A stretch of DNA of 64,000 nt, taken from contig CAJOJE010000012.1 in the NCBI GenBank assembly GCA_905234865.1, positions 1 through 64,000 of the forward strand, written 5' to 3'. Below the pieces are notes generated by a model. The model was not told the origin of the DNA. It saw nothing but the letters and a program-made list of their open reading frames with translations, and searched no databases. This document shows positions 15,906 to 47,651 of this stretch, in pieces. The position numbers and the translations under genes are program-made. Origin of the DNA: Candidatus Gastranaerophilales bacterium. Its GTDB lineage: Bacteria > Cyanobacteriota > Vampirovibrionia > Gastranaerophilales > Gastranaerophilaceae. Numbering within the stretch: position 1 is the stretch's first letter; every line of letters starts with the position of its first letter.

Positions 15906-16838
15906 CTACCCCGCAAGCATTTTCATAAGCAATTCGGGGAAATCTCCCGATAAAAATTCCGCAAAATCATTATGGTCAATTTGCGTTGCAACGACTTGAA
16001 TTAAATCTTTAGGTAATTGTTCCACCATAGGAGCCAAAAATTCAGGATCAAGGGTTTGCATAGTCTTGATTAAATCCTGTTTTTCAAGAAGCTGCGTCAT
16101 CGGGCGTGCCAAAACATTATTATCAAATTCCATGTAATAATCAGGATTTATGGTGCAAAGTCCTGCTATTGCTTCCATTTTTTCATTAACCTGCAAGTTT
16201 TGAAGAAATCTTTTATATTCATCATCTTCCATATTATTAATAAAATCAAGGTATTCATCGGCAGACTTATTTTCAAATTCGGCGCCGAATTGATTCATCA
16301 TGAGCTGTTGAAACTTACCGTATTCCATGCCTGCCAAATATTCCATAACATCTCTTTTTTCGAGATGAGTGCTTTCAAAAAACCTGTTCATTTCACCCGT
16401 TTCCATATAAGGAACAACATCTTCCATGGTAAAATGAACGAGCAATAAATCAATTAATTGCTCTTGCGGAAGTTGAACCATTAATTCGTTCAATCCTTCC
16501 ATGGTGAAATATTGAAGCCCAAAGGATAATTCTTCGCTGTTCAAATACGGTAAAAGTTTCAGCAAATCTTCTTCGTTCAATTGTTGGATAATCAAATATC
16601 TGTTATTCGGTTCTTCAAGCTTCATTATTTTTGCAAGTTTATCGGGGTCTTGCAAAAGTTTTTGAAGCAAAACGGGATCAACCGTCACCTGTCCTTCTTC
16701 GGTTACGATTGTTAAGGGTTCTTCGCCGGATTCCGTTACTTGAGGCTGATTTTGAACATTATAATTTCCGTACGGAAGAATGCTCGAAAGTCCGTAGTAA
16801 CGTGACAAATAAGAAATATCTATGGTTAAATCAATCAT
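15906..16838 (-). CDS. Helical-repeat protein, weakly like the MgtE N-terminal domain
   Basis: 310 residues, acidic and entirely helical by pattern. From about residue 50 onward it consists of short helix-turn units such as LLQDPDKLAKIMKLEEPNN, LNEEDLLKLLPYLNSEEL and LPQEQLIDLLLVHFTMEDV, which repeat about every 20-25 residues. This superhelix pattern recalls the cytosolic N-domain of MgtE and FliG-like repeats, but there is no CBS or membrane domain. No signal peptide and no catalytic motif. It is likely a cytoplasmic binding or assembly protein; function unknown. The gene is alone on its strand, followed by the phosphoesterase after 48 bp, so co-transcription is possible. Confidence 0.65.
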   Translation of the reverse strand: MIDLTIDISYLSRYYGLSSILPYGNYNVQNQPQVTESGEEPLTIVTEEGQVTVDPVLLQKLLQDPDKLAKIMKLEEPNNRYLIIQQLNEEDLLKLLPYLNSEELSFGLQYFTMEGLNELMVQLPQEQLIDLLLVHFTMEDVVPYMETGEMNRFFESTHLEKRDVMEYLAGMEYGKFQQLMMNQFGAEFENKSADEYLDFINNMEDDEYKRFLQNLQVNEKMEAIAGLCTINPDYYMEFDNNVLARPMTQLLEKQDLIKTMQTLDPEFLAPMVEQLPKDLIQVVATQIDHNDFAEFLSGDFPELLMKMLAG

Positions 16839-17040
16839 TTAATCAACTTCTTTGCCTTTTGTGGTGCGGCAACCCCTTATCTTATCTAAAAAATTATAAC
16901 GGGTTTAATTGTAAAAACTTTAGTTTTTGTAACATATCTTAAACATTCATTTCCGAGTCGATTAAATATAATATTAAGAAATATTACAATATAAGTATAT
17001 AAAAAAGCAATATTTTTGTCATACAAAACTTTATATAAGT

Positions 17041-17207
17041 ACAAGAGAGAATTAGAGAAAACCAAAAAACCACATAAAAAGAGAGCAAAAAGAGAGAAAA
17101 AACCGCAAAATACGAGGAACAAAGAGAAAAACCCTAACTACCACAACACAAAAAGAGGAACAAAAACCAAAATTTAACCCCCTTGCTTTTAAAAGCAAGG
17201 GTTTTTT
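17041..17207 (+). ncRNA. Candidate small RNA, purine-rich and almost free of U, with perfect terminator
   Basis: The stretch from about 17041 to 17165 contains only about six T in 125 bases and is made of A-rich blocks with repeated AGAGAG (17044-17050, 17080-17085, 17091-17096) and two GAGGAACAAA-like repeats (near 17116 and 17154). It ends in a strong + strand terminator. No reading frame of any size lies on this strand, and AT-rich sequence just upstream (TATATAAG at 17032-17039) could supply a promoter. An unstructured RNA of about 165 nt is the simplest reading. The AGGA motifs could bind CsrA-type proteins or mimic ribosome-binding sites; both are guesses. Bases 16839-17040 hold no recognised feature. 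Confidence 0.45.
17180..17207 (+). terminator. Strong intrinsic terminator
   Basis: A perfect 22-base palindrome at 17180-17201 (arms CCCTTGC and GCAAGGG around TTTTAAAA) followed by six T (17202-17207) on the + strand. The minus-strand flank is not T-rich, so it belongs to a + strand transcript. Confidence 0.8.
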
Positions 17208-17215
17208 ATTTTTAA

Positions 17216-44801: not shown

Positions 44802-44873
44802 TTTTTTTACCCCAAAAACAAGAAATCTCTCAAATTTGCGCAATTATTTTTATTTTAGTATTTTTATAAAAAT

Positions 44874-46283
44874 ATGAAGGGATTTTTTGACATTAACAAT
44901 AGGGTAAATTTGCCGTTTTTTAAGGGCGAACAAGATCAAAATTTATGCGTTCAATCAACGCTCCTTCGAAATTATATACAAAGCGTATCAAACAACCCCG
45001 CAAAATTAAACCCTCCTTTAAATAAAGATGTATTTGAATTTTCAAATACAAATAACAACCCGATTAAACAAGTTTCCGACACAGAAAAAAACGAAGAAGA
45101 CACAAACTCTTTAAAACTCGATACGGATACCAAAATACCCGATAAAAAAGAGGACAAGAAAAAATTAAAAGCTGCAATGATAGCAACTGCGCTGGCTTCG
45201 GGAGCAGCCGGCGTAAGCTTTATTTTAGGTGCGGCTAAATCGGGTAAATTAACCCCGACAACCATTTTCAGAAACATTGATGAAAATTCAACGTTTCAAC
45301 CTGCAAAAACAGTCAAAGAAGCTGTTGAATACGGTAAAAATACACTCAAAATCAAAAATTACATCGGTTTTGACAAAGGCTCGGAAGAAGAAAATTTGCA
45401 AGTTATAAACTGGATAAACGAAGGACTTACAAATACCGCAAAAAGACATAACGGAACGCTTTTAATGCCCAATGAAATTGTTTATACAACTGCTAACGAT
45501 TCGAATACGATTGCTTATATGTCAAGAGGTTACACTCTTGACGGCGCTTTAGTGAATGCAACGCTTGGAATAAACAGTTCAATTTTAGGTAAAATAGATG
45601 ACGAGGTTAACGAACTTTTAAAACATCTTAAAAGGGCAAATTTATACGCAACGGGCAGACAAAAAGCCTCAAATACAATTTATGATACCGAAGAATATAC
45701 GGGCATGGCAAAATTAATCGAACAATACAGGAAAAATAACCTCTCTTACAATGAAAAGATTAGATTGTATAATATAATGAGAGGCTTTGCAAATAATTAC
45801 AACGCATTAATCGAACAACCCGCCATATGTCTTAAAAATTTCCTGAAAGAAGAAGGCATACCATGCACTGAAGAGTATATGAAGCGCTTCACGACAGGCA
45901 ATATTGAAAAAGACAGAGGTGAAGTTTTAAAAGAATTAAGAAAATACATCACAAACGGCAAATTCAGAATTAAGACGCCGAACGCTTCACCGTTCCAAAC
46001 CTTATACCACGAAATGGGGCACCTGCAAGATACGACAAAAAGAGCGCCCGCAACAGTTGATTTTAAAGAAGGCGAAACATTCCCAAAAGAGTTGGAAGAT
46101 TGGCTCAACGACCCTAAAAATATGGAAGCTGCATATTCCGTATCAACGTATGCTACAACGGGCCCGGGCGAATTTATTGCGGAAGTTTATGCAAGACTTA
46201 TGGGCGGCGCTAAACTTCCAAATCATGTTCTTGATTTATATAAAAAAATGAACGGACCCGTTATACAAGGAATGCAAACATAA
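44874..46283 (+). CDS. HExxH metallopeptidase-like protein, paralogue A
   Basis: 469 residues, no signal peptide. The N-terminal 90 residues are polar with NLPFFKG (residues 12-18). A small-residue membrane-type helix near 100-122 (MIATALASGAAGVSFILGA) follows, then a helical domain. The C-terminus has YHEMGHLQD with HEMGH at 379-383 and GPGEFIAEVYARLMGG with Glu433 and Glu437, the order of a zinc gluzincin-type site: two His plus a downstream Glu. Family not recognised. The paralogue at 46311-47651 follows after 27 bp with both motifs intact. It could be an intracellular or membrane-tethered peptidase; substrate unknown. Confidence 0.75.
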   Translation: MKGFFDINNRVNLPFFKGEQDQNLCVQSTLLRNYIQSVSNNPAKLNPPLNKDVFEFSNTNNNPIKQVSDTEKNEEDTNSLKLDTDTKIPDKKEDKKKLKAAMIATALASGAAGVSFILGAAKSGKLTPTTIFRNIDENSTFQPAKTVKEAVEYGKNTLKIKNYIGFDKGSEEENLQVINWINEGLTNTAKRHNGTLLMPNEIVYTTANDSNTIAYMSRGYTLDGALVNATLGINSSILGKIDDEVNELLKHLKRANLYATGRQKASNTIYDTEEYTGMAKLIEQYRKNNLSYNEKIRLYNIMRGFANNYNALIEQPAICLKNFLKEEGIPCTEEYMKRFTTGNIEKDRGEVLKELRKYITNGKFRIKTPNASPFQTLYHEMGHLQDTTKRAPATVDFKEGETFPKELEDWLNDPKNMEAAYSVSTYATTGPGEFIAEVYARLMGGAKLPNHVLDLYKKMNGPVIQGMQT

Positions 46284-46310: not shown

Positions 46311-47651
46311 ATGCAAAATACCAACTATTCAACTATTTTAAGAAATACCGTTCAAAACATTAACGTAAATTCCTTCTTAGACAATAACGACAAAAAAGTT
46401 TTCGGGGAATTTTCAAATTATTACTTGACAATTCAAAAAGAGGATAATTTTAATTCATCAAAACCAAAAGAAAATAAAGGAAATAATCTTGTTTTTAAAG
46501 GAATAACAGGAATATTAGCGCTCGGTGTTTGTGCATTCGGAATTAAAAAACTGATTAACGGTCAAAAAATACAGACAAAAGGGCAAAATTCGCCAAATAT
46601 AAATACAACTCAACAGAACCCGAACGTAGATGTACAAACTCCCGTAATCCAAAATGCAGATGAAAACAACATCCGATTTTCTCCCGCTAAGACAATAGAA
46701 GAAGCAATCGAACATGGCATGCAAACATTAAAAATAAAAAGTTATTCGGGGTTTGAATATGAAGATGAAAAATGTGCCCTTGATATATTAAATTTTATAA
46801 ATGAAGCGCTTACGAGAGTTAAAAATGCAACCAAAGGACAGGTTAGAATGCCCGAAGAAATAGTGTACAAAAATTCCCCAAACTCAAAAGAAGTGGCATA
46901 TATGAGAATATCAAGAAGTTCAAACGGGGATACAAAAGGAATTTTAGGATTGAATAAGTCCGTTTTCGGCAACTTGGACGAGAAAATTGAAGATAAAATA
47001 ATGGATTTAGAAGATTTGGACGTTATAGGATACGAAGGAAAAATCGAAAATCCGATATATGATACAAAAAGTTCAAAAATACTCTTAGAAATGATTGAAA
47101 AATTAAGAGCAAACACTCTTTCATATAAAGAAAAATTTGAATTATTCAACAAATTAAGAAGTTTTCATGACAGAGCAGCGTATTTTGAAAAACACACCAT
47201 AACAATGGCGGAAGATTTTTTCAAACAAAACAAAATTGCATTTTCAAAAGATAATGTAGACTCTATAAAAGCGCTTCCAAAAATTTTACAAAGAGAAAAA
47301 GCAAAAGAACTTTTAAAACCCTACATTCAAGACGGCTCGTTCAAAATTGAAGTACCCTATTCTTCACCGTACAGAAGCATATACCATGAAATGGGCCATC
47401 TTCAAGACGACGTTGAAAGAACGTCGGCAAAGGGCTGTTACAAAAGTGAAGCGGACTATCCGAAAGAATTAAGGGATTGGCTCGACAATCAAAAAAATAT
47501 GGAGCTTGCAAGTTCGGTTTCAATTTACGCATCCTCGGGCCCCGGCGAATTTATTGCGGAAGTTTATGCAAGGATAATGAGCGGAAACAAAGTTTCCGAT
47601 GAAGTTATTGATTTATACAAAAAAATGAACGGCCCGAAAATATTTAATTAA
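46311..47651 (+). CDS. HExxH metallopeptidase-like protein, paralogue B
   Basis: 446 residues, 27 bp after paralogue A. It has a short polar N-terminus with LVFKGITG (about 63-70) followed directly by a small hydrophobic helix (ILALGVCAFGIKKLI), then an Asn/Thr/Gln-rich linker. The catalytic end is nearly the same as in A: YHEMGHLQDDVERT with HEMGH at 359-363, and SSGPGEFIAEVYARIMSG with Glu413 and Glu417, ending in LYKKMNGPKI. Between the linker and the motif both proteins share FSPAKTIEEAIEHGMQTLKIKSYSGFE-type sequence. No signal peptide. Function unknown; the pair is likely the result of a tandem duplication. Confidence 0.75.
   Translation: MQNTNYSTILRNTVQNINVNSFLDNNDKKVFGEFSNYYLTIQKEDNFNSSKPKENKGNNLVFKGITGILALGVCAFGIKKLINGQKIQTKGQNSPNINTTQQNPNVDVQTPVIQNADENNIRFSPAKTIEEAIEHGMQTLKIKSYSGFEYEDEKCALDILNFINEALTRVKNATKGQVRMPEEIVYKNSPNSKEVAYMRISRSSNGDTKGILGLNKSVFGNLDEKIEDKIMDLEDLDVIGYEGKIENPIYDTKSSKILLEMIEKLRANTLSYKEKFELFNKLRSFHDRAAYFEKHTITMAEDFFKQNKIAFSKDNVDSIKALPKILQREKAKELLKPYIQDGSFKIEVPYSSPYRSIYHEMGHLQDDVERTSAKGCYKSEADYPKELRDWLDNQKNMELASSVSIYASSGPGEFIAEVYARIMSGNKVSDEVIDLYKKMNGPKIFN

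What the first reader, a model, noticed from the sequence alone, without database searches (positions are those of the whole stretch)
17041..17207. Nearly U-free, A/G-rich small RNA candidate with a perfect terminator
Seen: about six T in 125 bases on the + strand, repeats of AGAGAG and GAGGAACAAA, no reading frame, then a 22-base palindrome and T6. Such strand bias is not expected by chance, and A-rich open RNA with AGGA repeats looks built to bind a protein or to compete with ribosome-binding sites. Known families of similar look exist (CsrA sponges), but none is recognised.
Basis: inference. Interest (0 to 1): 0.55.

Follow-up and report, generated by a model that had tools for sequence, protein, structure and literature searches.

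The report
U-poor sRNA family of Gastranaerophilales
The stretch looks like a real small-RNA gene, one of a multi-copy family in gut relatives of cyanobacteria: an almost unfolded, U-poor RNA behind a conserved promoter, sharing short words with the messages that have the same promoter, in a genome where the usual RNA-handling proteins CsrA, Hfq and ProQ were not found.

Summary
Window 17043-17207 is one of at least 4 copies in this genome; I collected 18 from the 9 genomes of its genus (order Gastranaerophilales). They share a nearly invariant promoter core, a mostly unfolded body and a terminator. Bodies repeat the words AAGAGAG (17 of 18) and ACCAC (18 of 18) and end in a GAGGA-type word 13-20 nt before the terminator; in three orthologous groups words are better conserved than linkers. 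One copy is syntenic in 8 of 9 genomes. The promoter also precedes protein genes, and some of their leaders carry AAGAGAG and AAGAGGA. A direct repeat resembling the cyanobacterial RpaB box (HLR1) lies at -71 in 17 of 18; the genome encodes RpaB. The CsrA-sponge idea fails: no CsrA in the 9 genomes, and its ANGGA motif is depleted. Hfq, ProQ and RRM proteins were not found in this genome. Best reading (0.4): a leader-mimic decoy that titrates a factor recognising the regulon's leaders. Expression and partner are untested. In passing: a second, ultraconserved CU-rich sRNA with the same promoter type.

The parts
16972..16987 (+). direct-repeat box TATTAAGAAATATTAC, RpaB/HLR1-like, -71 to -56 from the presumed start
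   Evidence: best match to TRTWAMGAAATRTWAM at -71 in 17 of 18 sRNA promoters (3 of 18 score no better than shuffles) and at -68/-69 in 12 of 12 promoters of the CU-rich sRNA; HLR1 definition seen in passages of PMC9241938 and PMC13421787
16996..17017 (+). core promoter element TATATAAAAAAGCAATATTTTT
   Evidence: 20 of its 22 columns invariant in 18 copies of 9 genomes (the copies were collected by the first 17 bases, so these are invariant by choice)
17030..17042 (+). -10-like/initiation element TTTATATAAGTAC (presumed +1 = A17043; start site inferred, not measured)
   Evidence: shared with protein-gene promoters; 18 nt after GCAAT
17043..17179 (+). sRNA body, T-poor, nearly unfolded
17043..17049 (+). 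AAGAGAG word 1 (at presumed +1)
17079..17085 (+). AAGAGAG word 2
   Evidence: 33 in 18 bodies after the first 8 nt, shuffles 2.3
17090..17096 (+). AAGAGAG word 3
17069..17073 (+). ACCAC word 1
   Evidence: 42 in 18 bodies, shuffles 5.5
17140..17144 (+). ACCAC word 2
17114..17118 (+).
17153..17159 (+). AAGAGGA, 3' Shine-Dalgarno-like word, ends 20 nt before the terminator stem
   Evidence: the last GAGGA (AAGGATT in copy L033) ends 13-20 nt before the stem in 18 of 18
17180..17207 (+). intrinsic terminator, 9-bp stem and T6

Best explanation
An independently transcribed, trans-acting small RNA of about 165 nt, switched on with an RpaB-type regulon. Its promoter carries an OmpR-family-like direct repeat at -71. 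The RNA is kept single-stranded and presents several copies of words also found in leaders of genes with the same promoter (AAGAGAG; AAGAGGA, which there can serve as Shine-Dalgarno) plus the sRNA-specific word ACCAC, but has no start codon at a usable distance. It most likely works by titration: made from 1-4 loci per genome, it occupies a factor that recognises these leaders (an unidentified single-strand RNA-binding protein, or the 30S subunit) and so damps or retunes translation or stability of the regulon's mRNAs. Shown here: the gene family, its promoter, motifs and openness, the sharing of words with leaders, and an RpaB gene. Inferred: transcription, RpaB binding, and the decoy action and its partner.
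For: Family: 18 copies in 9 genomes with near-invariant promoter core and terminators; a copy divergent from a ~700-aa gene in 8 of 9 genomes; outside the training set the family model finds four genomes of genus g52 (E 3e-15 to 1e-13; another g52 genome, G066, has no match). Motifs: AAGAGAG 33 vs 2.3 +- 1.4, ACCAC 42 vs 5.5 +- 2.2, GAGGA in 18 of 18; words better conserved than linkers in classes A, B, C; the full word set in 7 of 26 loci of other genera (g48, g52, g53). Openness: body less folded than mononucleotide shuffles in 16 of 18. Leader likeness: in 52 leaders AAGAGAG 10 vs 2.3 and AAGAGGA 7 vs 2.2 by shuffle, 0 and 0 in 43 control 5' flanks of the window; leaders are also T-poor (19% vs 33%). 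No start codon 4-13 nt after the last GAGGA-type word in 17 of 18. Regulation: box at fixed position, RpaB equivalog 362.6 bits, cut-off 330.
Against: No transcript, binding partner or phenotype is known. Hfq (0 of 58), CsrA (0 of 9 in the genus), ProQ and RRM (own genome) were not found, so the supposed protein partner is hypothetical. ACCAC is not enriched in leaders (2 vs 0.9), and the leaders were picked by requiring a Shine-Dalgarno-like word before the start codon, which favours GAGGA, AAGAGGA and GAGA; the control flanks were not so picked. In three own-genome copies AAGAGAG and ACCAC are less conserved than linkers (0.71 and 0.81 vs 0.85). The shuffles do not remove shared ancestry. 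The window's box scores no better than shuffles against HLR1 itself (12/16, p 0.44), though it fits the family's consensus 16/16 (partly circular); 3 of 18 boxes fail even that. Start codons are no rarer than in dinucleotide shuffles.
Confidence: 0.4

Rival explanations
1. A base-pairing sRNA family (multi-copy siblings): the purine words AAGAGAG and AAGAGGA act as seeds on pyrimidine-rich (UCUCU, UCCUC) stretches of target mRNAs or of other sRNAs.
For: Open, repeated short words and several copies per genome fit sibling sRNAs; words conserved in variable linkers.
Against: Pairing with the obvious pyrimidine-rich candidate, the own genome's CU-rich sRNA, is not better than shuffles (window -6.3 vs mean -8.7 kcal/mol; stronger than the shuffle mean in 3 of 18 copies). 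No Hfq or ProQ found. Targets were not searched genome-wide.
Confidence: 0.22
2. A 30S decoy in the strict sense: the unfolded A-rich RNA with AAGAGGA but no start codon binds initiating 30S subunits in unproductive complexes.
For: AAGAGGA stands at the Shine-Dalgarno position of some genes with the promoter; body unfolded; no start codon at usable distance in 17 of 18.
Against: Would need very high abundance (inference); start codons in the bodies are as rare as dinucleotide shuffles give (ATG 4 vs 4.4), so no selection against them is shown; AAGAGAG and ACCAC are not explained.
Confidence: 0.15
3. The RNA itself does little: what matters is the promoter, and the U-poor body is only the usual initially transcribed leader of this regulon (for example a leader whose gene was lost), ended by a terminator.
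For: Leaders of the regulon have a similar make-up and words; the promoter is better conserved than the body, and BLAST matches in relatives are mostly promoter.
Against: Body words conserved above linkers in three orthologous groups, GAGGA-type word at a kept distance from the terminator in 18 of 18, ACCAC in 18 of 18, word set in other genera.
Confidence: 0.15
4. CsrB/RsmZ-type sponge of CsrA.
For: A-rich RNA with GGA words and terminator; some genomes of the order have CsrA (25 of 58).
Against: CsrA not found in the genus (0 of 9); ANGGA 1 vs 11.6 by shuffle; body mostly unfolded, so GGA is not in stable hairpin loops; no Rfam match at gathering score.
Confidence: 0.02

Closest known systems
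PsrR1 and the RpaB regulon of cyanobacteria
   Same: sRNA in an RpaB (HLR1) regulon; PsrR1 is described as a trans-acting sRNA in a feed-forward loop with RpaB (passages of PMC13421787). A box of this type and an RpaB equivalog are present here.
   Different: PsrR1 base-pairs with photosystem and phycobilisome transcripts; this is a U-poor, unfolded, multi-copy RNA in Gastranaerophilales. The box spans -71 to -56 (described activating position -66 to -45) and reads mostly on the reverse strand (13 of 18). The RpaB found has no cysteine in its translation, whereas a conserved Cys59 is described in cyanobacteria.
CsrB/CsrC/RsmZ sponges (features recalled)
   Same: Titration by repeated short words is the proposed logic.
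   Different: No CsrA found, ANGGA depleted, words AAGAGAG/ACCAC instead, no hairpin presentation.
Yfr1 of cyanobacteria
   Same: Short RNA with a conserved unpaired word and a terminator (abstract and passages of PMC2190773).
   Different: Yfr1 carries ACUCCUCACAC between two stem-loops; this RNA lacks it and has no 5' stem. The CU-rich second sRNA seen in passing is the nearer analogue, by sequence character only.
Multi-copy sibling sRNAs and mRNA-leader sponges (recalled, no call)
   Same: Several similar copies per genome; decoy of mRNA signals.
   Different: Here the copied signal is the purine-rich leader of the sRNA's own regulon.

Membership tests
CsrB/RsmZ-type CsrA sponge | CsrA encoded in the genome | tested here: not met
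   no match in G000 nor in the other 8 genomes of the genus; 25 of 58 genomes positive
CsrB/RsmZ-type CsrA sponge | many ANGGA motifs, in hairpin loops | tested here: not met
   1 in 18 bodies vs 11.6 by shuffle; body mostly unfolded
Hfq- or ProQ-dependent sRNA | Hfq or ProQ present | tested here: not met
   Hfq 0 of 58; ProQ no match in own genome
Any Rfam family | match at gathering score | tested here: not met
   (whole window: two tRNAs only); highest-scoring sub-threshold match PyrG_leader 30.8 bits, gathering 65
RpaB (HLR1) regulon member | RpaB encoded | tested here: met
   NF045944 362.6 bits, cut-off 330
RpaB (HLR1) regulon member | HLR1 KTTACAWW-N2-KTTACAWW upstream | tested here: inconclusive
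   18 sRNA promoters mean 13.4/16 vs 11.5 shuffled, 16/16 in one (L033), window 12/16 not above shuffles; fixed-position repeat in 17 of 18
RpaB (HLR1) regulon member | RpaB binds and regulates the promoter | not testable with these tools
   needs EMSA or ChIP
Intrinsically terminated sRNA gene | promoter plus terminator around a non-coding conserved body | tested here: met
Intrinsically terminated sRNA gene | transcript detected | not testable with these tools
   no RNA data
Yfr1 | ACUCCUCACAC between two stem-loops | tested here: not met
   sequence and fold; definition

The most novel reading that the evidence does not exclude
A new class of RNA sponge: an sRNA that copies the leader words (Shine-Dalgarno included) of its own regulon, is co-activated with it by an RpaB homologue kept in a lineage outside the photosynthetic cyanobacteria, and titrates a still unknown leader-binding factor in a genome where CsrA, Hfq, ProQ and RRM proteins were not found.
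Probability: 0.22. Interest if true: 0.78.

Novelty: new variant of a known kind. Interest (0 to 1): 0.55.

Why it matters
The Gastranaerophilales are gut bacteria related to the cyanobacteria, and two searches of the held open-access library found no paper on their regulatory RNA (0 papers; 9 papers, none on it by listing). The locus gives a promoter, a regulon, a candidate regulator (RpaB) and two conserved sRNA families to test. It raises two questions: what RpaB does without photosynthesis, and which protein handles sRNAs where Hfq, CsrA and ProQ were not found.

Tried and rejected
CsrA sponge: rejected. Hfq, ProQ or RRM partner: not found; KH-domain and other RNA-binding proteins were not searched. 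Sponge for the CU-rich sRNA: duplex energies no better than shuffles. Small protein on either strand: no conserved ORF seen. Sigma-70 promoter: the consensus scan lists no + strand site at 16972-17042 (one on the - strand, 17022-16994) and in the region as many sites as shuffles (12 vs 11.9). Known Rfam family: none at gathering score; sub-threshold matches only. Literature: 'Gastranaerophilales' with 'regulatory RNA' 0 papers, 'Melainabacteria' with 'small RNA' 9 papers, none on sRNAs of this group by listing, 'Vampirovibrionia' with 'RpaB' 1 paper, on thioredoxins; some searches served context. Three papers were opened, passages only.

Faulty steps and limits: the pattern was misspelt and replaced. 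Alignment A1 held several loci on the wrong strand and was dropped for A2. The 18 copies were collected by an exact 17-base core, so more divergent copies may be missed and the core is invariant by choice. In one search the terminator of copy L034 was placed one hairpin too far, so its body there is too long; searches used a hand-cut body (in one search with the first bases of the stem left on). The windows missed the box of the CU-rich set and of part of the protein set; one search repeats the scan with a wide window. The consensus was read from these promoters, so its scores are partly circular; 3 of 18 sRNA, 1 of 12 CU-rich and 4 of 12 protein promoters (the last picked by hand) score at p above 0.05. 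In one search, of 112 promoter hits 57 were classed as protein genes and 38 as sRNA-like; 52 leaders were kept (at least 12 nt, first 25 nt unique, Shine-Dalgarno-like word required); one gene (L151) is counted twice, and a few hits are probably chance. In one search, 24 of the 26 loci are those fetched outside the genus and two (L088, L094) were picked because they looked alike; 20 were called sRNA-like, 3 protein, 3 undecided, and L225 among the 20 is a protein gene by eye.

Full report
Observation. The sequence at 17041-17207 is as described: 6 T in the first 125 bases, the T-poorest such stretch of the window, and below all of 50 shuffles at 139 bases; AGAGAG three times, GAGGAACAAA twice; a perfect 22-base palindrome and T6. 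Mechanical ORFs exist, but no ORF common to the copies was seen.

Organism. A collection scan with the promoter pattern returned 12 stretches: 10 titled Candidatus Gastranaerophilales bacterium, one Candidatus Galligastranaerophilus intestinigallinarum and one uncultured bacterium.

A gene family. BLAST of 16990-17215 hit 33 of 58 genomes (own included), mostly through the promoter. In the genus (9 genomes) I collected 18 copies: 4 in this genome (window; G000:C9, 94% identical; C7, 80%; C2) and 1-2 in each other genome. In 39 alignment columns all 18 agree, 33 of them in the promoter, of which the first 17 were the collecting pattern. Three syntenic groups appear. Class A is divergent from a gene of 662-757 aa in 8 of 9 genomes; its N-terminus looks prepilin-like by eye, but Pfam found no family in the one tested (725 aa), and it seems to have a sigma-70-like promoter of its own (by eye). 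Class B lies beside the 310-aa gene found at window 15906-16838, in 4 genomes with changing orientation. Class C lies between a gene of about 575 aa (a 172-aa ORF in G008) and a phosphomannomutase-like gene (name by eye, no call), in 4 genomes. Two copies of this genome (L021, L022) fit none. The family model hit 73 of 146 genomes of the family at E <= 0.001, but many weak hits are promoters of protein genes. Of 26 loci of other genera, 7 (genera g48, g52, g53) carry at least 2 GAGAG, 2 CCAC and 1 GAGGA with T at most 18%. At E <= 1e-6 the model found 3 of 117 genomes drawn from the order: two of the window's genus and one more of its family.

Anatomy. Body: 55% A, 14% T pooled, from about 6% T in this genome's L022 and window copies to 21% in L029. 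AAGAGAG occurs 33 times after the first 8 nt (shuffles 2.3; 17 of 18 copies), ACCAC 42 times (5.5; 18 of 18), GAGGA in 18 of 18, while ANGGA, the CsrA type, occurs once (11.6). Between orthologues the words AAGAGAG/ACCAC/GAGGA are better kept than linkers: class A 0.71/0.80/0.82 against 0.63, class B 0.67/0.70/0.83 against 0.55, class C 0.95/0.90/1.00 against 0.82; in the three related own-genome copies only GAGGA is (0.71/0.81/1.00 against 0.85). The last GAGGA (AAGGATT in one copy) ends 13-20 nt before the terminator stem in 18 of 18, with no start codon 4-13 nt further in 17 of 18; start codons as such are no rarer than in dinucleotide shuffles. The bodies fold less than mononucleotide shuffles in 16 of 18; the whole window transcript has z -2.1, its main structure being the terminator.

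Promoter and regulon. The promoter GCAAT-N18-TTTATATAA(A/G)TA was found 11 times in this genome with up to 3 mismatches against 1 for the reversed control. Besides the sRNAs it precedes a ribbon-helix-helix (CopG) gene (RHH_1, 43.2 bits) and small proteins of which three were tested: two without Pfam match, one with a sub-threshold match. In 52 leaders of such genes across loci AAGAGAG and AAGAGGA are enriched (10 vs 2.3; 7 vs 2.2) and absent from 43 control flanks; ACCAC is not enriched; the leaders were picked by a Shine-Dalgarno-like word, which favours AAGAGGA. So the sRNA shares two words and its T-poverty with mRNAs that share its promoter. A repeat like TGTTAAGAAATGTTAA lies at -71 in 17 of 18 sRNA promoters, at -68/-69 in the 12 promoters of the CU-rich sRNA with the exact 21-mer, and near -60, -70 or -80 in 12 protein promoters, that is in steps of one helical turn; 3 of 18 sRNA, 1 of 12 CU-rich and 4 of 12 protein promoters score no better than shuffles at p 0.05. 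In 4 of the 12 CU-rich promoters its reverse complement is GTTACATTTCTTTACA, which fits HLR1 (definition). This genome has four OmpR-family regulators over the cut-off, one of them RpaB by NCBIfam's equivalog (362.6 bits against 330). HLR1 scored directly is weaker in the sRNA promoters (13.4 of 16 against 11.5; the window copy 12, not above shuffles).

Partners. CsrA 0 of 9 in the genus (25 of 58 in all), Hfq 0 of 58, RRM and ProQ no match in the own genome. The CU-rich sRNA is not a partner by duplex energy.

Interpretation. What is shown is a conserved non-coding gene family with a regulon promoter. That it is transcribed is very likely (0.9, inference). Its action is inferred. A titrating decoy of leader-binding factors explains the openness, the repeated words, the Shine-Dalgarno-like word without start codon and the several copies; base pairing, a strict 30S decoy, and an inert leader remain possible. 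It may work like a sponge; it is not a member of the CsrB family.

Noticed in passing
L179:1501-1521 (G000:C2:27995-28015, + strand); not in the window: A second sRNA family: CU-rich, with the 21-mer CTTCCTAACCTTCCCTTCCTA identical once in each of the 9 genomes of the genus and within 3 mismatches in 25 of 58 genomes (0 in the reversed control), behind the same promoter type and before a terminator; no Rfam match in L179 beyond a tRNA. It looks like an anti-Shine-Dalgarno RNA, in character like Yfr1.
   Followed up: partly
L218, L227, L231 (other genera): CU-type RNAs with CCTATTCCTACCTTCCTA that also carry GAGAG words: a mixed form of the two sRNA families.
   Followed up: no
L024 (G000:C8) and homologues in L014, L015, L016, L073, L076, L079, L081, L084, L093, L095, L161: A ribbon-helix-helix (CopG) protein, 62 aa in this genome, under the same promoter in many genomes; its leaders in G013 (L014) and G027 (L016) hold AACCACAGGAGGA, close to the sRNA words.
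   Followed up: partly
L010, L101, L153: Small proteins under this promoter end in G(T/S/N)NFIA (read); the one tested (L153) has no Pfam match.
   Followed up: no
L157:1191-1979: A gene under a weaker match to the promoter encodes a calpain-like protein (Peptidase_C2, 23.7 bits, just under the cut-off of 23.8); the regulon may include secreted proteins (inference).
   Followed up: no
L197:1486-2232 (G000:C19): RpaB equivalog whose translation has no cysteine, while a redox Cys59 is described in cyanobacteria.
   Followed up: partly
L152 (G000:C7, upstream end of the match at 2181, - strand): A weak promoter match followed by TTTACTCTCTCTTAATATCCTCGTG and a terminator-like end: complementary in character to AAGAGAG and GAGGA, possibly an anti-sponge, possibly chance.
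   Followed up: no
window 44840-44880: Another promoter match (2 mismatches) overlapping the first possible start of the unknown ORF 44874-46283; neither this nor the next ORF 46311-47651 has a Pfam match.
   Followed up: partly
L094, L088, L213, L215, L217, L222: In other genera a GAGGA word sits in GGAATG...CATTCC or a near variant, a possible hairpin before the terminator, after ACTTCAC-like repeats.
   Followed up: no
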